Origin: a virus
Strand: one strand, 5' to 3'
IMG/VR virus record: IMGVR_UViG_3300037337_000170
Span: 1 to 64,000 of that record
Length of the DNA: 64,000 nucleotides
Shown piece by piece: positions 35,257 to 59,624 of the stretch (the stretch's first letter is position 1; the number at the start of each line of letters is the position of its first letter). The position numbers and the translations under genes are program-made. The notes beneath the pieces were generated by a model. That model made no database searches. It saw only the letters and a program-made list of their open reading frames with translations, and was not told where the DNA came from.

Positions 35257-35799
35257 ATGCTACCATCATTCAGTTACAGTAATATCGACGGCATAGGCCC
35301 TATTGTTGATGATATGTTAGAAACTATTATTGACCCACTAGAACTAGCCTTGTATCTGCCGTCTGTACTTTATGCTGATTACTTTTCTATTGACATTACT
35401 GTAAATGTAATATACTTTGACGAAGTGTTGGGGACTAGGGTTTTACCAGCCAAGATTGTTGAGGTTAACCCAATAATCGGATTAACAGCCGTTATTAATT
35501 CTAATGTAATCACACTTAGTGGTAATCATATTTCTAGCTTTGATGATAATTATATTTTTATTGATAATCCTAAATATGTTATCAATAGAAAGGTCGACAA
35601 GGTGCGAAGCCTTATAGAATATATAATGCCACCTGATATATTACAACTTATACCGCTACCATTTACCATAACAATGCCATCTAGTCCCTTTGGGTCAGGA
35701 CCAGAAACCACCATTCATACAGAATTATATCAGTGGGTATATTGGACTGTATTAGAGGCTGAAAAAAATATTAAACTATATGTGTCGGAAGGATTATAA
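35257..35799 (+). CDS. hypothetical virion-region protein (180 aa)
   Basis: 180 residues starting MLPSFSYSNIDGIGPIVDDM, beta-rich and hydrophobic (VLPAKIVEVNPIIGLTAVIN). It is coupled (TAATG) to the PAAR gene, suggesting a tail-associated role, for example in tip assembly. No family is recognised. No promoter motif is seen directly upstream apart from an off-consensus TATAAATC touching the ATG. Confidence 0.72.
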   Translation: MLPSFSYSNIDGIGPIVDDMLETIIDPLELALYLPSVLYADYFSIDITVNVIYFDEVLGTRVLPAKIVEVNPIIGLTAVINSNVITLSGNHISSFDDNYIFIDNPKYVINRKVDKVRSLIEYIMPPDILQLIPLPFTITMPSSPFGSGPETTIHTELYQWVYWTVLEAEKNIKLYVSEGL

Positions 35800-36107
35800 T
35801 GCCTGCTATTTCCCGTCAAGGTGATTCCGTCATGAGTCCAGACGGAGCCAGAAGAAAATGTAGATCACCAATGAAAACCTCTGTGGACGAGGTGAATACG
35901 GTAAATGTATTTGCAAATGGTATTCTTATAGTCGCCGCTGGCGACCAAATAGCCGCACACCCTAAGGCAGGATGTTCACCCGATGAATCTACTCTTTCAG
36001 TAAACTCGACCACAGTCTTTATTGGAAATGACGGAGTAGGCAGAATCGGTGACAAATATGGCAATAATACAATTACACAAGGTAGTTCGAATGTTTTTGC
36101 CGGTTAG
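35799..36107 (+). CDS. 5.4: PAAR-type spike tip protein
   Basis: 102 residues. Motifs GDSVMSPDGARRK, VFANGILIVAAGDQIAAHPK and STTVFIGNDGVGRIGDKYGN give the repeated beta-hairpins and the His/Cys metal site (AHPKAGC) of PAAR proteins. PAAR proteins form the sharp tip on gp5/VgrG spikes; T4 gp5.4 is the counterpart. Convergent with the minus-strand virion block. Confidence 0.83.
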   Translation: MPAISRQGDSVMSPDGARRKCRSPMKTSVDEVNTVNVFANGILIVAAGDQIAAHPKAGCSPDESTLSVNSTTVFIGNDGVGRIGDKYGNNTITQGSSNVFAG

Positions 36108-43442: not shown

Positions 43443-44720
43443 ATGGAGACCATATTATCCCAGGCTGGCCTTATCACAGTAGAAGAATGCATGATCCTAA
43501 AGCCAGGGCAAGATGGTGTGAATATCATTCAGCAATTGGCCTCAATAACTTTATATGAGGATTTGTATTCACCGTTTATTACTGGTCAGGTCATATTATC
43601 AGATACCGGCGATATCCCTAATCTTATCGGGCGTGGCGGCAAGGATATTCTTAAATTAAAATTATATACTCCTACCATTAATAAGGAGAACTATATTGAA
43701 GCCTTTTTTATGATTTATAAAATCGGTGATAGATTTAACTCCGCAGAAAGGTTTCAGCATTATACTCTTTTCATTGTGTCAGAAGAATACTTTCAAGACA
43801 CATCTAAAAGAATAAGCAAAACCTATTCTGATAATGCTAATAAGATTGTCAGCAATATATTGACAGATACCTTGAGCTCAACAAAGAAGTTTAATACTAC
43901 TGGGGATTCAAGTGTAATCAAATACACATCTAACTTTTGGAGCCCATCAAAGAATTTTAGATACATTACAGATCATGCAGTAGATGATAAAGGGTCTCCG
44001 TCTTTATTATTTTTTGAAAATAGATATGGCTTTAATCTCCACTCCCTAGATCACCTAATTGACAAGACAAATAGCCCACCGATTCAGAGTTTTATGAGCT
44101 CAGATTATTCAATAAACATGGAAAGTAATTCCGACAATCAGTTATCATATGGTCAGGCTCAACGAGATCCATCCAAGGATTTTCAAATCATACAAGATAT
44201 TAGAGTCGACAAGATTTTTAACTTTTTTGATGATTACGCCGCTGGTATGATTAAGACAAAGATGTATAGTCATGACATAAGCACCAAGAGATTGAATATT
44301 AAAAAATATGAGATGATTCAGGATACTGGTCCTAGACTTAATACCAATAGACCATACAGGGACGAAATTGTTTCTAACGTGGATCCTGTACTGATGTTTA
44401 TGACACAGCATAACAATTCACATGACAAAGGCGATTCTACGGATTTTAATATTAAACAGAAACGCATTATCAGACTAAGACAAATGTATTCTCAGACTAT
44501 TGAAATAGATGTTTTCGGCAGAACAGATTATACAGTAGGCAAAAAGGTAAATGTTTTTGTTAATCGATTAGTCCCTCTTATCAAAACCGACACTGAGGAT
44601 GACTATACAGATAAGATTTATTCCGGTGTGTATATTATTACGGCTATTACCCATAAAATAAATAGAGATCGACACCTGTGTGTGCTTGAGTTGAGTAAAA
44701 ATTCCACGGATCTAATGTAA
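43443..44720 (+). CDS. 27: baseplate hub gp27-like
   Basis: 425 residues (T4: 391). Directly before gp5 and coupled to it (TAATG). IIQQLASITLYEDLYSPFIT followed by GQVILSDTGDIPNLIGRGG, KLKLYTPTI and YTLFIVSEEYFQDTSKRISK fit a gp27/VgrG-N-like hub with tube-like barrel domains. The trimeric hub holds the gp5 spike. Assigned from fold pattern and position. Confidence 0.78.
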   Translation: METILSQAGLITVEECMILKPGQDGVNIIQQLASITLYEDLYSPFITGQVILSDTGDIPNLIGRGGKDILKLKLYTPTINKENYIEAFFMIYKIGDRFNSAERFQHYTLFIVSEEYFQDTSKRISKTYSDNANKIVSNILTDTLSSTKKFNTTGDSSVIKYTSNFWSPSKNFRYITDHAVDDKGSPSLLFFENRYGFNLHSLDHLIDKTNSPPIQSFMSSDYSINMESNSDNQLSYGQAQRDPSKDFQIIQDIRVDKIFNFFDDYAAGMIKTKMYSHDISTKRLNIKKYEMIQDTGPRLNTNRPYRDEIVSNVDPVLMFMTQHNNSHDKGDSTDFNIKQKRIIRLRQMYSQTIEIDVFGRTDYTVGKKVNVFVNRLVPLIKTDTEDDYTDKIYSGVYIITAITHKINRDRHLCVLELSKNSTDLM

Positions 44721-47251
44721 TGAAAAGTTCAAATGTATACTATGGGGTAGTAGAGGAAAGAACCGAGGACCCGCTAAAATTGGGTCGCTGTAGGGTTAGA
44801 ATTGTTGGGGTACATACAGAGGATAATACCATCCTACCGACCAAGGATCTACCGTGGGCGTATCCAATGATGCCGGTTAATTCTGCCTCCATGAATGGTA
44901 TCGGATACAGTCCCACTGGTATATTAGAGGGCACCTGGTGCATTCTGATTTTTAGAGATGCCGAACAACAGCAACCTATTATAATTGGAACTATCGGTGG
45001 CATACCTGAAGCAGATGCCCCAACAGAAACAGCTTTCGTTACTGAAGCCCAACCTGTAACAACTAGACCAGCATCTGTTACAACTGGTTCAGGTACAGTA
45101 CTTACTGACTCATCTGGTAATCCAGTTCTTCAAGGTGAGGAAAATAATCCCAGTGCATCTGAACGCCCTGCCACAGTTCCAGCACCAAACAAACCTGCGG
45201 CTGCGTCTATTGCAAAAAAAGCCGGAGCAATGAAGACTTCACAAGCTGGAATTGATATTATCATCTTTGAAGAAGGTATTAGTAGTCTAGTAAAAGGAAG
45301 AAACCGGGCAGTAAAAAAATATCCCTCTGACGATACTTTACTATATGCATATCTTGATACCAGAAATATTTGGACAATTGGTGTAGGTTCTACATTCATG
45401 CTTGATATGTCTCGCGTCAATGAGAATAGTGTGGTAACTGTATCTGTAGCAAAGCAAATGTTACAGGTACACTTATTAAATGAAGTAGAAATTCCTCTTA
45501 ACAGAAATATTAAAGCACCTGTTACTCAGGATATGTTTGATGCCATGGCATCTCTAGCCTATAATATGGGTGTATATGGTTGGATGAGGTCGGCCGCATT
45601 CAGTTCATTAAATGCAGGAAAATATGAGGAGGCTGCAGCCTTAATTCCAAGTACACGAACTGGTGGTGGGAACGGTCCAAGAAGGATACGAGAGGCCGCG
45701 CATTTTCGGGCTGGGGGTATACCCAATAAACAGAATGGTATTGATCAGGTTGCACCGACATCAGAAACTGCCGCAGTTTCTCAAGATTCTGGCGCAACGC
45801 AGAACACTGCAGTTCGACCTACTCCAGTAACAAAACCAGTTGAATCTAATCAAAACACTGTTAGCAGTCAGACCTCGGCTAACCCATCAAATGCTAGTGG
45901 AGGTACCTGGGAAGGTTTTAAAGATCCAAACAAAAAATACCCAATGGCTGAATGGTTAAATGAGCCCGATACCCATAGGCTAGCAAGAAACGAAGATATC
46001 GATAAAACAGTAGTCTATACCAAAGAGGCAGCAAGGGCCCGCGGAGTTGTATCGGCTGGGACTAGTTGGACTCAACCTCCGATTCCATATAATGCAAAAT
46101 ACCCTTATAACAATACATACGTTACTCAATCTGGTCATATTGATGAATGGGACGATACTCCAGGCAATGAAAGACTTCATAGATATCATAACTCTGGTAC
46201 CTATGAGGAAATAGATGTTAATGGAACCAGAGTTACCAGAATAATCGGTGATGATTATGAAATCTTAGAGCGACATGGTAATATATTAATTAAAGGTAAT
46301 TGTAATGTCACCATTCGCGGCAATAGTAATATTAGAGTAGATAATAATGCAAACATTGAGGTAGGTGGTAATTCGCATACATCGATTCATGGTAATTGGG
46401 ATTTAGGTGTTAGTGGTAATATTAATATTAATGCCGGTGGTGTGATTGCATTAGACGGTTCTAATATCCATCTTAATTCGGGACTTGCAAAGGTTGCCGC
46501 AAAAGGTGCTGGTGCTCAGGCCGCGCCAGAATTCTCAGAATTAAGCACTCCTAGTCGACATGAAGATGTCAAGTCTGCGTATGATTCACCCGAGGACGGC
46601 GACAATACAGAATTCCTTAATACGCAGATCGCATCGGGAAAAATTTCAGAGGAAGACGTGGCAGCAAAAACAGTAACCGTGGAAGAAACAGCGGCACCTA
46701 AACCGCCGATTCCAACAAAACCATTACCGCAGGGATGTGAGGGTCTGACCCTGCCATTTAATTCCAATACCAGGCTATCCCCAAATTATACTATGGGTGA
46801 CTTTATTAGAGAATCTACTGTAGCCAGAGGTATACCTAGCGCGCCCCAGGCCGGGTTTTCTACATTAGAGCTTGGCTGTAACATGAAGTTTATTGCCACC
46901 AACGTGGCCGAAATTGTTAAGGCTCGTTACCCTAATATGAAGATAAATAGTTGCTTTAGGTCGGCTGCAGCCAATAAAGGACTAGCTGGAGCATCATCGA
47001 CTTCTAAACATATGTCGGGTTTGGCCTTAGATATGGGCTTTATTGGTTTCGATAATAAGCAAAAATATGAAGCAGCAATTGAAATTCAGAAATTGTTACC
47101 TGACTATGACCAAATTATTCTAGAATACTCTGGCAGAAGTTGCTGGATCCATGTCGGTTTAAATAAAGGTAAGAATAGAAGAGTTATTCTTACCATGGAT
47201 GTAGGTAAGGGTGGAAGGACAATTCGGGATAAATTTGTTCTATTAGGTTAA
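44720..47251 (+). CDS. 5: baseplate spike gp5 with lysozyme and M15 peptidase domains
   Basis: 843 residues (T4: 575). OB domain 1-100 (YYGVVEERTEDPLKLGRCRV; WCILIFRDAEQQQPIIIGTI); GH24 lysozyme domain about 170-340 with FEEG (Glu184/185), YLDTRNIWTIGVGS (Asp213, Thr219) and YNMGVYGW; beta-helix about 495-590 with G-N-x-(N/H)-x-x-(I/V) repeats (NVTIRGNSNIRVDNNANIEV); and an extra C-terminal M15-type D,D-/L,D-peptidase domain about 690-843 with SKHMSGLALDMGF (His764, Asp771) and CWIHVG (His811). The first three are as in T4, where the spike digests the wall locally; the M15 part would add peptide cleavage. Confidence 0.92.
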   Translation: MKSSNVYYGVVEERTEDPLKLGRCRVRIVGVHTEDNTILPTKDLPWAYPMMPVNSASMNGIGYSPTGILEGTWCILIFRDAEQQQPIIIGTIGGIPEADAPTETAFVTEAQPVTTRPASVTTGSGTVLTDSSGNPVLQGEENNPSASERPATVPAPNKPAAASIAKKAGAMKTSQAGIDIIIFEEGISSLVKGRNRAVKKYPSDDTLLYAYLDTRNIWTIGVGSTFMLDMSRVNENSVVTVSVAKQMLQVHLLNEVEIPLNRNIKAPVTQDMFDAMASLAYNMGVYGWMRSAAFSSLNAGKYEEAAALIPSTRTGGGNGPRRIREAAHFRAGGIPNKQNGIDQVAPTSETAAVSQDSGATQNTAVRPTPVTKPVESNQNTVSSQTSANPSNASGGTWEGFKDPNKKYPMAEWLNEPDTHRLARNEDIDKTVVYTKEAARARGVVSAGTSWTQPPIPYNAKYPYNNTYVTQSGHIDEWDDTPGNERLHRYHNSGTYEEIDVNGTRVTRIIGDDYEILERHGNILIKGNCNVTIRGNSNIRVDNNANIEVGGNSHTSIHGNWDLGVSGNININAGGVIALDGSNIHLNSGLAKVAAKGAGAQAAPEFSELSTPSRHEDVKSAYDSPEDGDNTEFLNTQIASGKISEEDVAAKTVTVEETAAPKPPIPTKPLPQGCEGLTLPFNSNTRLSPNYTMGDFIRESTVARGIPSAPQAGFSTLELGCNMKFIATNVAEIVKARYPNMKINSCFRSAAANKGLAGASSTSKHMSGLALDMGFIGFDNKQKYEAAIEIQKLLPDYDQIILEYSGRSCWIHVGLNKGKNRRVILTMDVGKGGRTIRDKFVLLG

Positions 47252-47261
47252 TAAATAAACT

Positions 47262-47645
47262 ATGAAAGCAATATACTCTGATATAGATTTTAATTTTTTA
47301 CCTAATCCTTTGACTGGGGATATTGGTATTAAAACAAATGAGTCTGCTGTAAAATCTGCCATTAAGACCTTGATACTTACGAACTATTTTGAAAAACCAT
47401 TTCATAGTGAAATAGGCTCACCGATTCGTAGTCTGTTATTTGAAAATATTACTCCCCTGTTGGATATTACTATCAGAGAGGCCGTTTCCGGTCTAATAAA
47501 AGAATACGAACCCAGAGTCGATCTTAATAATGTTACTGTCGATGTATCACCAGATAACAATAGAATGTTTATCGGTATTACATTTACTATAAAAAATACA
47601 CTAGAAACAAGTAGTATGGAAGTCATTCTAACCAGGACTCGATAA
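47262..47645 (+). CDS. 25: baseplate wedge gp25
   Basis: 127 residues (T4: 132). YSDIDFNFLPNPLTGDIGIK, TNESAVKSAIKTLILTNYFE, KPFHSEIGSPIRSLLFENIT define gp25, the lysozyme-like fold of sheath-initiating wedge proteins conserved from phages to type VI secretion (TssE). Between gp5 and gp6 as in related phages. Confidence 0.94.
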   Translation: MKAIYSDIDFNFLPNPLTGDIGIKTNESAVKSAIKTLILTNYFEKPFHSEIGSPIRSLLFENITPLLDITIREAVSGLIKEYEPRVDLNNVTVDVSPDNNRMFIGITFTIKNTLETSSMEVILTRTR

Positions 47646-53600: not shown

Positions 53601-56600
53601 ATGAAAACATATTCAATACCCCCATATTTCGACGACTTTTCTGAAGATAAAAACTTTCAGCAGATTCTGTTTAAACCAGGCTTTGCTGTACAGGCACGTG
53701 AGCTTACTCAACTTCAGACAATTCTTCGTGGTCAGATTGAAAAATTCGGTAATCATATTTTTCAACAGGGTTCTGTTGTAATTCCAGGAAATTCTAGGGC
53801 AGAGTTAAATATACCTTATGTAAAATTACAACCGACCTTTAACTCTGTTAATATTGATTCAAAGGCCTTTGACGGTCAAACCGTTATTGGCGCGTCTACA
53901 GGCATTGAAGCCATAGTTAAGACCACCGCTGGCGCGACATTATCTGATCCAGATACTCTGTACATTGTGTATACAAAAGGCAGCAATGGTCTTCCGTCAA
54001 ATGAGTTTGAAACTTCAGAAGAAATATTTGTAAAATCAAGGCCAAATATCAGAGCCACATTGTTAGAGACTGACTCCACTGGCTTTGGAGCTCTGGTATA
54101 TGTTAACCGTGGTGTCTATTTTGTTAATGGGTCATTCGTGTTGGTAGATCAGCAGGTTGCTATTCTTTCCAAATATACCACGACACCATCTGCTTCAATC
54201 TTACTTAAGATTGTTGAAACCTTAGTCGAATCCGATACCGATGAATCTTTGTTGGATCCTGCCAATGGGTCATTTAACTATGCAGCACCAGGTGCTGATC
54301 GAGTAAAAATATCACTAGAGCTGGTTGTTCTTCCTCTGACCGCACCAATTTCTAGTGATTTTGTACAAATTATGAAATACCAAGACGGTATTTTATTAGA
54401 GCAGAGTAGACACCCAAAGTATAATGAATTAGAAAGATCATTGGCACGGAGAACTTTTGATGAGTCGGGAAATTACATCTCATTTGGCTATAGTCCCAGA
54501 GTAACAGAAGATTTTAAGTCCCGATATAATAATGGGCATAGTCTATCTGGCTCTAAGGATAGAATTGCGACAAAAGTTACAAATGGCAAGGCATACATAC
54601 AGGGCTTTGAAGTCGAGACCTTAAATGAATCTGTAGTCATTATTGATAAGGCACGTACCTTAGATCATATAGAGTCCCTACCAACCGTTAGTATGGTTCC
54701 AAGCTTTGGGCAGTATCTATTTGTTACTGACTTGACTGGTATGCCAGACTTTCGGGGCAGAGAGAATATTGATCTTTTCAATGCTATTTCGACACTTGGT
54801 GATAAGGTAAAGATAGGATCTGCCACGGTAATTGCGATTGATTATCATGAGCCAAATACCACAACAAGTAATGCAATCTACAAGCTATTTGTTTCCGATA
54901 TCCTAATGACCGCCGGTGGGATTAGTTCGGTTGGTTCGGTTGGGTTTTCTGGTGGCAAAGCCGAGGTGCTGCATAAGGTTACAGCACGGGCTACCGGTTT
55001 GGATTTTATTCTTGGTGAAATCGTATCGTTCGGTTCTATCAGACGTGCTACCGTTGGGAAATGGGACCGTTCAACTTCGTCATTGTATCTACTTAAGCAT
55101 CTGAATACATTAGAGATCCCAATTATAAATGATGGGCTTACCGCGCCATCCGGTGCATCATCTGTTGTTCAAGATAAGACGATTGTTGGATCATATCTAT
55201 CAAGTAGCCCAATTATCAAACTTCCGACGACAAATGCTTTTGAAGTTAAAACTGGCGCAGGCACTGTTGACATATCCTATAAAGTTTATAGAGAAGTCAC
55301 AATTGCGACTAATGCATCCGGGGCCGGAACCGCTACTGTTTCTGGGTTAACTATAGACCCAATCGAGGCTGGCAACTTCATTATCTCCAGCGCCTCAGGC
55401 ATTCTTTCTAATTCTATTGCGACATTATCCAATAATGGTCTGTCCATATCGATTACCGATGGTCCGGTCTCAGGTACGTTGAGAATCGTATGTGCCGGAA
55501 CAAAACTTAACCAGAGCGCTAGAAGCAAGGTATTCGTCTCATCATTCTTTCAGACAGGACTAACCCCGGCAAATATTGTACAACTCAATAAAGCCGATGT
55601 ATATCGAGTAATATCCGTTGTCTCGACTATTGACGGTGATGTGACTTCTCGATTTACTCTTGATAATGGGCAGAGGGATTTTGCATATCTACGGGGCAGA
55701 CTAAATTTAAGGGGAACTCTTCCAGCTGGTACCTTGACTGTAACATATAGCTATTTTACACATTCGGGTTCTGGCGACTATTTCTCTGTTGATTCTTATG
55801 CATTATCGGGTCTACCTGATTACTATGACAATATCCCAATTTATATTTCGAATAGTACCTCGGAGAGTTTTGATCTCCGTAACTGTCTTGACTTTAGAGC
55901 TAGAATCGGGGATAACGGCACATACACAGCCGGTAGCGCCGCGCCTCTAGATCTGGTTCAAGTCGACTCTCGTATAACTACATCAATGAGAATATATGTC
56001 GGAAGAATAGACAGTGTTATTGTTGGAAAAAGCGGTATTGTTGAGGTCTTACGCGGTATTCCAAGTCTGAGACCAGTTGCCCCCAGTATAAATGATGATA
56101 GTATAAAAATGGCCGAGATTACCATTGGTCCATATACTAAAAGCTTAGAATCCGTTAATGTAAGAATCCTTAATAATAAGGTCTACACTATGCGGGATAT
56201 TGGGCTAATGGAGAAACGAATCAACAATGTAGAGAAGTATGCACAGATTACACATGAGGAATCTTTGCTTCTGAATACAGAGGTTATAGACGCGGCATCT
56301 GGCTTAAATAGATTCAAAAGCGGGTATTTAGTCGAAAATTTCAATAATCTAGATATAATTGCTGACTTTTTTCGCCCTGGGTTTACCGTGACCTATACTA
56401 TAGCTGGTGAGATTACTGCAGCTACAGAGCAGCATGAAACTAATCTTCAGGTGGTTTCTACTACAGGGCGGCTATATGGTGCCCTTACCAATGGATATAT
56501 TACGGCTAATTTTACAGAAGTTGAATTTTGTAAGCAACCAGTTTCGACAAAGATTACCAACATCAATCCATTCAATGTTGTATCATGGGTTGGAAAATTA

Positions 56601-56912
56601 AGTTTGGTCCCATCACTCCAAACCTTTACTGATATTATTGTCCTTCCACCTTTGTTCAACCATGTGACCAATGTTATAGTCAATACTGTGACAAATGTTA
56701 TAACGACTGAGGTGATCAATGTAATAAATCAGACGGTAGATGTGCCTCGTGCATGGGGTTGGGAAGCGCCACCGGGTGCAATAGTGTCTTTTGGCGCCTT
56801 AAGCGATGTTGAGACTACTTTTTTGGAGATAATTAATGTCCCTAGTACTCCACAGGTATTTAATCAGCTTTCAATTGCGTTCACCCGAGACGGATGGCGC
56901 CCACGGATTTGA
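53601..56912 (+). CDS. large baseplate/tail structural protein, DUF4815-like
   Basis: 1103 residues. YFDDFSEDKNFQQILFKPGF, then AVQARELTQLQTILRGQIEK, FGNHIFQQGSVVIPG is the start of the DUF4815 family found in cyanophage-like T4 relatives. A long beta-rich body follows; the end has repeated TNVIVNTVTNVITTEVINVI. It probably forms the outer baseplate to which fibres attach (functional analogue of gp10/gp9). Last codons overlap a small frame in another phase (56836-57021). Confidence 0.82.
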   Translation: MKTYSIPPYFDDFSEDKNFQQILFKPGFAVQARELTQLQTILRGQIEKFGNHIFQQGSVVIPGNSRAELNIPYVKLQPTFNSVNIDSKAFDGQTVIGASTGIEAIVKTTAGATLSDPDTLYIVYTKGSNGLPSNEFETSEEIFVKSRPNIRATLLETDSTGFGALVYVNRGVYFVNGSFVLVDQQVAILSKYTTTPSASILLKIVETLVESDTDESLLDPANGSFNYAAPGADRVKISLELVVLPLTAPISSDFVQIMKYQDGILLEQSRHPKYNELERSLARRTFDESGNYISFGYSPRVTEDFKSRYNNGHSLSGSKDRIATKVTNGKAYIQGFEVETLNESVVIIDKARTLDHIESLPTVSMVPSFGQYLFVTDLTGMPDFRGRENIDLFNAISTLGDKVKIGSATVIAIDYHEPNTTTSNAIYKLFVSDILMTAGGISSVGSVGFSGGKAEVLHKVTARATGLDFILGEIVSFGSIRRATVGKWDRSTSSLYLLKHLNTLEIPIINDGLTAPSGASSVVQDKTIVGSYLSSSPIIKLPTTNAFEVKTGAGTVDISYKVYREVTIATNASGAGTATVSGLTIDPIEAGNFIISSASGILSNSIATLSNNGLSISITDGPVSGTLRIVCAGTKLNQSARSKVFVSSFFQTGLTPANIVQLNKADVYRVISVVSTIDGDVTSRFTLDNGQRDFAYLRGRLNLRGTLPAGTLTVTYSYFTHSGSGDYFSVDSYALSGLPDYYDNIPIYISNSTSESFDLRNCLDFRARIGDNGTYTAGSAAPLDLVQVDSRITTSMRIYVGRIDSVIVGKSGIVEVLRGIPSLRPVAPSINDDSIKMAEITIGPYTKSLESVNVRILNNKVYTMRDIGLMEKRINNVEKYAQITHEESLLLNTEVIDAASGLNRFKSGYLVENFNNLDIIADFFRPGFTVTYTIAGEITAATEQHETNLQVVSTTGRLYGALTNGYITANFTEVEFCKQPVSTKITNINPFNVVSWVGKLSLVPSLQTFTDIIVLPPLFNHVTNVIVNTVTNVITTEVINVINQTVDVPRAWGWEAPPGAIVSFGALSDVETTFLEIINVPSTPQVFNQLSIAFTRDGWRPRI

Positions 56913-57021
56913 CGTATGGCCCACATTTTTTCTTGATATAGTGACAACATTAATCAAATTAACAGATTACACGCTACGAGAAAAATTAAATCTCGTAGAG
57001 CAATGCCAAAGACATCTTTAA
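56836..57021 (+). CDS. possible overlapping small gene (61 aa)
   Basis: A frame starting with ATG 56836 after TTTGGAGATAATTA, a good ribosome site, overlaps the last 77 bases of the DUF4815 gene and continues to 57021 (DVWPTFFLDIVTTLIKLTDY, then LREKLNLVEQCQRHL). The part beyond 56912 is protein-like and leucine-rich. An inverted repeat CTACGAGA/TCTCGTAG (56974-56998) lies in it, which could also mean the stretch is only a non-coding hairpin. Uncertain. Confidence 0.4.
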   Translation: MSLVLHRYLISFQLRSPETDGAHGFDVWPTFFLDIVTTLIKLTDYTLREKLNLVEQCQRHL

Positions 57022-57023
57022 TA

Positions 57024-57066
57024 AAGTGTTAGGTCAGTTTTATTTCAATAGATAAAACTAACTTAA
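57024..57066 (+). repeat. inverted repeat before the late promoter
   Basis: AGTTTTAT and ATAAAACT form a perfect 8-base stem, extended by GTT/AAC with a gap, around a TTCAATAG loop. It lies between the DUF4815 gene region and the late promoter at 57068. It may end the upstream transcript, though a T run is lacking. Confidence 0.5.
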
Positions 57067-57067
57067 T

Positions 57068-57075
57068 TATAAATA
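57068..57075 (+). promoter_or_regulatory. T4-type late promoter
   Basis: TATAAATA, 27 bases before the ATG at 57102, which has AAGGACGAAC as ribosome site. Confidence 0.8.
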
Positions 57076-57101
57076 AAATACATGAGAAAACAAGGACGAA
57101 C

Positions 57102-59624
57102 ATGGCAACTAGAACAGTAGACACTCTAAGTTTAGACGGTATAGCCGGCGGCTTTTTTATTCAGCCGGATAGTATTCGTTTTGAGGTAGCTGAAGCCAGA
57201 CCTAAGACCCGATTGTTTGCATTTTTCGATGGCGTTAGTGTGGCTGCAGCCATTACCCCAGAAGGCGGCATTAGAGGTGGGAATGTTGTTACAGATGCTC
57301 AGGGAACTGCAACTGGTATTTTTAACATTGAGGCATTCACCTACAATACGGGAAGAAAAATATTAAAATTTCAGGATAGCCCGGTATTCACCTCTGATAC
57401 AATTATCGGATCAACAGTCAGCAGCGCTGAAGCAGATTTTATGAGCACTCGTGTTCAGAGGACACTGCAGGATACTATTACTGTGGTCACGGATGTATTC
57501 CAGACCAATGTGGTTGATGTTCAAAACTTTGTTAATATCGATCAATTAAATATAATCGAAAATAACGTGATCGGCACTCTAAACATTCCTGTGGTGGCCG
57601 AACTCGCCGTTCCAGTGGTCGCTGCTCTAGGTGATCCACTTGCCCAGTCTTTTTTCACATACGGTGTTAAAGGTGGCTGTGCTATTACGAAAATTGATAT
57701 CTATTTCGCAACAAAGGATGAAGAGTTGCCGGTTATTCTTGAACTTAGAGAATTGACAAATGGATATCCGGGCCCTAAGTTGATTGATAGATTATCATGG
57801 GTTTCTCTAGAACCAAGTCAGGTGCTTCTATCTGATGATTCCTCCTTAGCTACACCCTTTGAATTTTTCCCGGCCGTGGTGTTGGAGGAAAATAAGGAGT
57901 ACTGTTTTGTTCTAAAGACGAACTGCGATACATACAACGTTTGGACAAGCGTTCTTGGCGAACTATCTGTAGAAACTGGGTTAAAGGTATTTGAACAGCC
58001 ATTCATTGGCTCTATGTATAAGTCGGAGAATAATATCACATGGGTCACTGATCCAACAGAAGATATTAAGTTCACGATGTACAAAGCTGAGTATGATACG
58101 GTCAATCCAGCAACCGTTATAATGAGAGCAAATTCTAGACCAGTCCTATTGAATGGTACTAGATTTAGAGTAACGGCAGGTTCTACACTGGTTAGATTAA
58201 ACTGTGGCTACAAGCATGGGCTTAGGAATAATGACTTTCTGAATCTTTTTTCTCCCACGGGTCTGTTTCGTGGAATTCCAAGTGCTTCATTGAATGGAGA
58301 CTTTGCCGTAACCGTAATTAATGAATATGTTGTTACTTTCATTAGCCCCACAGCGGCGACCTCTACCGGCACATTAGCAACACCAGGATTAGTGAATGCT
58401 ATTCAGGTTGACTCAGGCGGCACAAACTACATAAGTCCAGTTATCTCCTTTGCTAGCAGTACTGGTACAGGCGCGTCGGCAACCGCTGTTGTTACCGCTG
58501 GTGTAATTACCCAAATCAATATAACAAACTCAGGTACTGGGTACCTATCGGCCCCAACAATAAGTGTTACCGATAGTACAGGCATCGGCGCTTTATTATT
58601 TGTTATCAGTGAGGCACTATTTACTATATCGACAAATAGGATTACTAATGATTATAGAGTCATAAGTTCCTTTGCTGAATCACCAAATACTTCTATAACA
58701 ACCAACATTAGTACTACATCATCCGAATATAGTATATTGGATGATGTCAACTACACTCAGGGGACATTCTATAGCCCCAAGATCCCAAGTATCCTGGTGT
58801 CGGCAACAAATGCCAATACATATCTGTCCAATCAGACTCCCCTATCTGTAAATGTAAATCTATCTACATCCAACAAAAATACGTCCCCGATTTTTGCACT
58901 GACAGAAAGACCAAGATTAGCCACATCGGCATTTATCATCAACAACCAGACCCCCATAGAGACCCTGACTGCGACTGAGGGCTATGGTACTGTAACAGGT
59001 TTGGTTTCTGGAAAATTGAATATAACCAATCCAGGTGCAGGTTACCTTACCGCGACAGTTACAATATCCGCACCCGATGTATCGTTCGGGATACAGGCAA
59101 CTGCAACTGCAACTATCACGGCAGGGTCTATCACTGATATTACTATTGATAATCCTGGGATTGGGTATGTCACACTCCCAACTGTAACCATTACTGGAAC
59201 CGGAACTATAACCGTAATCGCTGCATCATCTGCCAACCTAACTCCGTTCAATACAGAAGTACTTCCTGGTCACGGTACAGCAGAAAGTCGATATTTCACC
59301 CAACAAATTAACTTAGAGACAGTATCTACTGGTGTTCAAATTATTTGCGCTGCATACTCTGAGCTTGAAAGCAATTTTGACTTCTATATTAGGACCTCGT
59401 TGTCCTCGGAGGAAACCTCTCATGCTGGATTAAACTGGATGATGTTAAAGTGTGATGTTGAAAGAAACCTATCAACCTTTGATGGCGAATATTTGGACTA
59501 TACATTTTTTGCAAATAACATCAAGCCGTTTGATGTCTATGATTTGAAGATAGTAATGCGTAGTACCAACCGGGTTAAGGTGCCTAGGATTAAGAATTAT
59601 CGTACCATTATATTAGCCACATGA
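57102..59624 (+). CDS. large baseplate/tail structural protein, 'DPLAQSF' type
   Basis: 840 residues. ARPKTRLFAFFDGVSVAAAI, DPLAQSFFTYGVKGGCAITK and IDIYFATKDEELPVILELRE are hallmarks of large virion proteins of T4-like cyanophage relatives that accompany DUF4815 proteins. Residues ~435-500 and ~650-700 hold G-(T/A)-G-Y repeats (ITQINITNSGTGYLSAPTIS; ITDITIDNPGIGYVTLPTVT) shared with gp8. The end VKVPRIKNYRTIILAT is typical. Probably outer baseplate or fibre network. Own late promoter. Confidence 0.82.
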   Translation: MATRTVDTLSLDGIAGGFFIQPDSIRFEVAEARPKTRLFAFFDGVSVAAAITPEGGIRGGNVVTDAQGTATGIFNIEAFTYNTGRKILKFQDSPVFTSDTIIGSTVSSAEADFMSTRVQRTLQDTITVVTDVFQTNVVDVQNFVNIDQLNIIENNVIGTLNIPVVAELAVPVVAALGDPLAQSFFTYGVKGGCAITKIDIYFATKDEELPVILELRELTNGYPGPKLIDRLSWVSLEPSQVLLSDDSSLATPFEFFPAVVLEENKEYCFVLKTNCDTYNVWTSVLGELSVETGLKVFEQPFIGSMYKSENNITWVTDPTEDIKFTMYKAEYDTVNPATVIMRANSRPVLLNGTRFRVTAGSTLVRLNCGYKHGLRNNDFLNLFSPTGLFRGIPSASLNGDFAVTVINEYVVTFISPTAATSTGTLATPGLVNAIQVDSGGTNYISPVISFASSTGTGASATAVVTAGVITQINITNSGTGYLSAPTISVTDSTGIGALLFVISEALFTISTNRITNDYRVISSFAESPNTSITTNISTTSSEYSILDDVNYTQGTFYSPKIPSILVSATNANTYLSNQTPLSVNVNLSTSNKNTSPIFALTERPRLATSAFIINNQTPIETLTATEGYGTVTGLVSGKLNITNPGAGYLTATVTISAPDVSFGIQATATATITAGSITDITIDNPGIGYVTLPTVTITGTGTITVIAASSANLTPFNTEVLPGHGTAESRYFTQQINLETVSTGVQIICAAYSELESNFDFYIRTSLSSEETSHAGLNWMMLKCDVERNLSTFDGEYLDYTFFANNIKPFDVYDLKIVMRSTNRVKVPRIKNYRTIILAT

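What the first reader, a model, noticed from the sequence alone, without database searches (positions are those of the whole stretch)
44720..47251. gp5 spike with both lysozyme and M15 peptidase domains
Besides the OB, GH24 and beta-helix parts of T4 gp5, the last 150 residues hold an M15 peptidase with its zinc ligands (H764, D771, H811). One spike would cut both glycan and peptide bonds. The position after the needle beta-helix, near the PAAR tip, is unusual because the enzyme would lie at or beyond the tip.
Basis: partly seen in the sequence, partly recalled or inferred. Interest (0 to 1): 0.7.

Follow-up and report, generated by a model that had tools for sequence, protein, structure and literature searches.

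The report
Phage spike with two cell-wall-cutting enzymes
The tail spike protein of this uncultivated T4-like virus carries two predicted wall-cutting enzymes, one for the sugar chains and one for the peptides; the combination is real, but it recurs in many related viruses and is a variation on a known theme.

Summary
ORF 44720-47251 (+, 843 aa) is a T4-type gp5 lying between gp27 and gp25. Its order is OB domain, GH24 lysozyme, beta-helix needle, a roughly 95-residue tether, then an M15 zinc-peptidase domain. The zinc ligands H764, D771 and H811 are correct. R747 and E802 (the likely catalytic base) complete the site; all five are invariant in 23 of 23 homologues. The AlphaFold model of the domain best matches the Streptomyces albus zinc DD-peptidase 1LBU (Z 12.8).

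The fusion is not unique. In the viral contigs fetched, about 20 distinct gp5 proteins share this order, though some have a degenerate GH24. Others keep the M15 but swap GH24 for GH19, Phage_lysozyme2 or a VgrG3-like hydrolase. Cultured phages Cr30, pf16, BUCT-ZZ01 and Melnitz carry gp5-M15 proteins. In other phages (PA5oct, Milchi, Vibrio 1.244.A) M15 sits on the PAAR tip protein instead, and where gp5 is visible it lacks a recognised lysozyme. A separate PAAR gene is in this window (35799-36107).

Most likely the spike carries a glycosidase above the needle and a tethered peptidase at its tip, to open peptidoglycan during entry, as in 'evolved VgrG' proteins. Enzyme activity is inferred, not shown.

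The parts
44720..47251 (+). gp5-type central spike: OB, GH24, beta-helix, tether, M15 (843 aa)
44720..45040 (+). gp5 OB domain (residues 1-107)
   Evidence: PF06714 2e-23; T4 gp5 chain 1k28
45224..45724 (+). GH24 lysozyme domain (about residues 169-335); candidate triad E185, D213, T219, with about 19 extra residues between E and D compared with canonical relatives
   Evidence: PF00959 5e-19; solved lysozymes 6e-14; residue positions; alignment of 26 homologues
46067..46483 (+). gp5 beta-helix needle (about residues 450-588)
   Evidence: T4 gp5 1k28 residues 377-548; PF22178 0.0013, below its cut-off
46484..46774 (+). tether (about residues 589-685), mostly predicted disordered, with a conserved motif P603, L608, R613, Y621, P624, G627, D628 and one short helix
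46775..47248 (+). M15 zinc peptidase domain (about residues 686-843)
   Evidence: PF08291 1.2e-6; model against 1LBU Z 12.8 over 130 residues
47009..47011 (+). H764, zinc ligand
   Evidence: invariant 23/23
47030..47032 (+). D771, zinc ligand
   Evidence: invariant 23/23
47123..47125 (+). E802, probable catalytic base; aligns with the active-site-like Glu of Sonic hedgehog
   Evidence: invariant 23/23; profile alignment
47150..47152 (+). H811, zinc ligand
   Evidence: invariant 23/23
46958..46960 (+). R747, conserved active-site arginine
   Evidence: invariant 23/23
43443..44720 (+). gp27-like hub protein, directly upstream; shares one base with gp5
   Evidence: phrog_350 3e-59
47262..47645 (+). 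gp25 wedge protein, directly downstream
   Evidence: PF04965 4e-10
35799..36107 (+). separate PAAR protein (102 aa), the likely gp5.4-type tip cap
   Evidence: phrog_281 2.3e-15; PF05488 0.0038, below its cut-off

Best explanation
This is the gp5 central spike of a T4-like phage carrying two peptidoglycan hydrolases at opposite ends of its needle. By analogy with T4, three copies form the needle and a separate PAAR protein caps it. GH24, above the needle, cuts glycan strands. The M15 domain, on a flexible tether leaving the needle's blunt end, is a zinc DD-peptidase-like enzyme that cuts peptide stems or crosslinks. On sheath contraction both reach the periplasm and open a local hole in the wall. 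Shown here: the architecture, the intact active-site residues, the predicted fold, purifying selection and the recurrence. Inferred: trimer, PAAR capping, both activities, the peptide bond cut and timing at entry.
For: Domains and synteny gp53-gp27-gp5-gp25-gp6. Complete M15 site R747/H764/D771/E802/H811 invariant in 23 homologues found without using that motif. Model pLDDT 87.9; best and only strong PDB match is the zinc DD-peptidase 1LBU, Z 12.8, against 7.4 or less for the next. Purifying selection on M15 as strong as on OB and beta-helix (dN/dS about 0.06 against L002). M15 stays at the needle end while the glycosidase is exchanged, and it appears on PAAR in other phages. PAAR gene present. 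Precedent: the Anabaena phage A-1(L) hub has endoglucanase and peptidase domains both shown to hydrolyse host cells (PMC10966104).
Against: No biochemistry. The Pfam M15 score is only just above cut-off. Hedgehog proteins keep a similar zinc site without known peptidase activity. GH24 has an insertion between E185 and D213, so its activity is less certain; some relatives lost that segment (L081, L088, L090, L091). The tether is predicted disordered, so the enzyme's position relative to the PAAR tip is undetermined.
Confidence: 0.82

Rival explanations
1. The M15-like domain is a non-catalytic zinc fold used for binding peptidoglycan or for spike assembly, much as Hedgehog signalling domains keep the zinc site for other roles.
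For: The profile of these domains also matches Sonic hedgehog (E 0.003), and VIA-align ranks hedgehogs second (Z about 7).
Against: The zinc ligands, E802 and R747 are all invariant, as expected of an enzyme; the closest fold is an active DD-peptidase (Z 12.8).
Confidence: 0.1
2. The M15 domain acts late, as an endolysin or in processing of virion proteins, and is carried on gp5 only for storage.
For: Free-standing M15 endolysins are common in phages and are relatives of this domain.
Against: It is fused to the needle end of the spike or to PAAR in many lineages, a position that matters at entry.
Confidence: 0.06
3. Assembly or gene-calling artefact joining a gp5 and a neighbouring endolysin.
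For: None found.
Against: The same single open frame in L001 (another sample), L002 and L003 with far more synonymous than non-synonymous change, and the same order in about 20 distinct proteins.
Confidence: 0.01

Closest known systems
Bacteriophage T4 gp5 (tail-associated lysozyme; PDB 1k28, 5iv5)
   Same: OB domain, GH24 lysozyme, beta-helix needle, gp5 role in the baseplate; E 1.7e-40
   Different: T4 gp5 ends with the beta-helix; here a tether and an M15 domain follow. The PAAR gene lies 8.6 kb upstream of gp5.
gp5-M15 proteins of Caulobacter phage Cr30, Pseudomonas phage pf16, Synechococcus phage BUCT-ZZ01 and Methylophilales phage Melnitz; PHROG 430
   Same: OB, beta-helix and C-terminal M15 domain of the same subfamily (split over two genes in Melnitz)
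   Different: Their glycosidase is Phage_lysozyme2 (Cr30), GH19 (BUCT-ZZ01), or none recognised (pf16, Melnitz); here it is GH24.
PAAR-M15 proteins (PA5oct, Milchi, Astolliot, Vibrio 1.244.A, vB_PpuM-Lauda)
   Same: The same M15 subfamily carried at the spike tip, in a gene near gp5 in most
   Different: Carried by the PAAR cap, so presumably one copy per virion instead of three.
Anabaena myophage A-1(L) hub gp15 (PMC10966104)
   Same: One baseplate protein with glycan-cutting and peptidase domains, both shown active on host cells
   Different: The enzymes are on the hub (gp27-like position), not on the needle. The peptidase family was not compared here.
Evolved VgrG and two-domain T6SS effectors (PMC10210955, PMC12135965)
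   Same: Enzymes fused behind the needle beta-helix; some T6SS effectors pair a peptidase with a glycosidase
   Different: Those act in bacterial competition; this is a phage entry spike.
HydH5 of staphylococcal phage phiIPLA88 (PMC3150257)
   Same: A virion-associated protein with peptide-side (CHAP) and glycan-side (LYZ2) domains
   Different: Unrelated families, siphovirus, Gram-positive host.

Membership tests
T4 gp5 central spike | N-terminal gp5 OB domain | tested here: met
   PF06714 2e-23
T4 gp5 central spike | Intervening GH24 lysozyme with Glu/Asp/Thr triad | tested here: met
   PF00959 5e-19; E185, D213, T219 align with relatives; the E-D spacing is longer than usual
T4 gp5 central spike | C-terminal triple-stranded beta-helix | tested here: met
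   Alignment to 1k28 377-548; PF22178 itself below its cut-off
T4 gp5 central spike | Gene beside gp27, gp25 and gp6 (as in T4-like relatives) | tested here: met
T4 gp5 central spike | Maturation cleavage between lysozyme and beta-helix, and trimer formation | not testable with these tools
Peptidase family M15 (zinc DD-peptidase type) | HxxxxxxD plus distal His zinc ligands | tested here: met
   H764, D771, H811; 23/23
Peptidase family M15 (zinc DD-peptidase type) | Acidic catalytic base and conserved Arg | tested here: met
   E802 and R747 invariant; role assigned by alignment only
Peptidase family M15 (zinc DD-peptidase type) | M15 fold | tested here: met
   Predicted model against 1LBU: Z 12.8, rmsd 2.9 over 130 residues
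Peptidase family M15 (zinc DD-peptidase type) | Hydrolysis of peptidoglycan peptides | not testable with these tools
   -
PAAR-capped spike | PAAR protein encoded by the same phage | tested here: met
   35799-36107, phrog_281 2.3e-15; Pfam PAAR below cut-off and no match at E 0.001 in the whole-genome scan
PAAR-capped spike | PAAR binds the needle end of this gp5 | not tested
   No complex was modelled

The most novel reading that the evidence does not exclude
A tip-peptidase module that is a general, exchangeable part of T4-like spikes: the same M15 enzyme rides either on the needle end of gp5 (three copies, usually with a glycosidase in the same spike) or on the PAAR cap (one copy, with gp5 lacking a recognised lysozyme). 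It has moved between the two carriers more than once.
Probability: 0.5. Interest if true: 0.5.

Novelty: new member of a known kind. Interest (0 to 1): 0.36.

Why it matters
It shows that the T4 spike, the textbook puncturing device, often carries a second, peptide-cutting enzyme in environmental phages, and that this enzyme can sit on gp5 or on the PAAR cap. That makes phage spikes directly comparable with evolved VgrG and PAAR effectors. It also gives a testable system for why entry sometimes needs both glycan and peptide cleavage, and for how C-terminal extensions leave a needle that is capped by PAAR.

Tried and rejected
Artefact joining two genes: rejected. Uniqueness: rejected. Absence of PAAR: the Pfam whole-genome scan found none, but PHROGs and an iterated local search found one at 35799-36107. 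Literature: no paper found that describes a gp5 with an M15 domain; the pf16 and Melnitz papers do not mention it. The tether gave no ordered domain. Neither GH24 nor a gp5-PAAR complex was modelled.

Full report
What is there. The ORF at 44720-47251 (+) encodes 843 residues without interruption. It lies in a T4-type baseplate cluster: tail tube cap, gp53, gp27, gp5, gp25, gp6. Pfam finds the gp5 OB domain, a GH24 lysozyme and an M15 peptidase above their curated cut-offs, and the gp5 beta-helix below its cut-off. phmmer aligns the OB and beta-helix parts with T4 gp5 chains at 1.7e-40. The GH24 part matches solved lysozymes at 6e-14.

The M15 site is complete. In 23 homologues, R747, H764, D771, E802, W809 and H811 are invariant. 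These homologues were found with peptide patterns that did not include those residues, or by tblastn. A wider set of 168 M15 ORFs shows nearly the same, but many of those were found with patterns containing E802, W809 and H811, so for these three residues the wider count is partly by construction. It is independent for R747, H764 and D771. A profile of the domains matches Sonic hedgehog at E 0.003, placing E802 on its active-site-like glutamate and H811 on its zinc histidine. The AlphaFold model (172 residues, mean pLDDT 87.9) matches the zinc DD-peptidase 1LBU with Z 12.8 over 130 residues; the next matches are hedgehogs at about 7 and L-Ala-D-Glu endopeptidases such as 5OPZ (6.8). The cleaved bond is therefore most likely a DD peptide bond, but this is an inference from fold only.

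Not an artefact. Contig L001, from another sample, carries the same gene with 99-100% identity. L002 and L003 keep the whole frame at 74% and 67% identity. Over the M15 domain, window against L002 gives pS 0.67 and pN 0.10 (dN/dS about 0.06), similar to OB (0.07) and beta-helix (0.03), while the linkers are much looser. Synonymous sites are saturated against L003, so only pS and pN are usable there.

How common it is. Among 168 M15 ORFs in 84 clusters at 90% identity, 20 clusters have OB-GH24-helix-M15, 16 have GH19 with helix and M15 (9 with the OB domain in the same ORF, 7 without), 2 have Phage_lysozyme2, 18 have helix and M15 with no glycosidase recognised by the local models (11 without and 7 with the OB domain), 10 have PAAR-M15, and 18 have M15 alone. 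A VgrG3-like hydrolase was then found by Pfam in one of the 'no glycosidase' class (L148) and in the split gene of another (L080). Some GH24-labelled rows (L081, L088, L090, L091) lack the catalytic stretch of GH24, so 20 is an upper count of functional pairs within the sample. Counts depend on the search patterns and are not a census.

Cultured phages. gp5 with C-terminal M15: Caulobacter phage Cr30 (with Phage_lysozyme2), Synechococcus phage BUCT-ZZ01 (with GH19), Pseudomonas phage pf16 (no glycosidase found), Methylophilales phage Melnitz (split over two genes). For Cr30 the M15 assignment rests on tblastn and the local alignment, not on Pfam. The search of 50,697 phage records showed no cultured phage with GH24 and M15 together in the listed rows. 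The predicted-structure library already holds such gp5-M15 proteins as 'Gp5 N-terminal OB-fold domain-containing' (pf16 is the top match), and PHROG 430 spans helix and M15.

PAAR. A whole-genome Pfam scan of the 128,647-base record found no PAAR. PHROGs finds one at 35799-36107 (102 aa, 2.3e-15), so a separate tip protein is encoded, 8.6 kb upstream of gp5. In other phages M15 is fused behind PAAR. In all 9 such loci where gp5 could be seen, gp5 had only OB and helix (293-424 aa); these 9 represent about four lineages. I tested three intervening or neighbouring genes for a lysozyme and found none recognised. The M15 tree needs at least three changes of the PAAR label on well-supported branches, which suggests movement between carriers. 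The tree has long branches and its bootstrap had not settled, so this is suggestive only.

Mechanism. In T4 the spike is driven through the outer membrane by sheath contraction, its C-terminal beta-helix foremost and capped by PAAR, and the lysozyme then opens the wall (general knowledge of T4). Here each chain continues past the needle end through a tether of about 95 residues. Most of the tether is predicted disordered (pLDDT under 50 for residues 584-627 and 649-670 of gp5), with one short helix and a conserved motif. The peptidase can thus hang at, beside or behind the tip; 'beyond the tip' is possible but not shown. The exchange of GH24 for GH19, Phage_lysozyme2 or a VgrG3-like enzyme while M15 stays indicates two separable modules, one per bond type. 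A precedent with measured activities is the hub of Anabaena phage A-1(L), whose endoglucanase and peptidase domains both hydrolyse host cells (PMC10966104). T6SS effectors pairing peptidase and glycosidase domains (PMC12135965) and C-terminally extended 'evolved' VgrG (PMC10210955) are functional parallels.

Verdict. The more interesting point is that the same tip peptidase rides on either gp5 or PAAR.

Noticed in passing
window 35799-36107 (+): The PAAR gene lies 8.6 kb upstream of gp5 and not beside it as in several relatives.
   Followed up: partly
L040, L041, L042, L045, L096, L097, L100, L108, L113: Where M15 is fused to PAAR, the visible gp5 has no recognised lysozyme domain (9 of 9 loci, about four lineages).
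   Followed up: partly
L038:3959-4999 and L038:4999-7002: Methylophilales phage Melnitz appears to have two peptidase domains in its split gp5: a VanY-like one after the OB domain (PF02557 1e-4, below cut-off) and the M15 after the beta-helix.
   Followed up: no
window 45272-45358: The GH24 of this lineage (also L002, L003, L069, L072 and, in part, L004) has about 19 extra residues between the catalytic Glu and Asp compared with marine relatives.
   Followed up: partly
window 46526-46603 (gp5 residues 603-628): The tether holds a motif (P..L..R..Y..P..GD) conserved across GH24-type gp5-M15 proteins although mostly predicted disordered; it may dock on PAAR or the needle.
   Followed up: partly
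L081, L088, L090, L091: gp5-M15 relatives in which the catalytic part of GH24 is missing, so M15 may be the only wall enzyme left in the spike.
   Followed up: no
window 53601-59624 (+): Two large baseplate-region proteins (1103 and 840 aa) match two parts of the unknown-function family phrog_358 (2e-213 and 2e-97), as if one long protein were encoded as two genes here.
   Followed up: no
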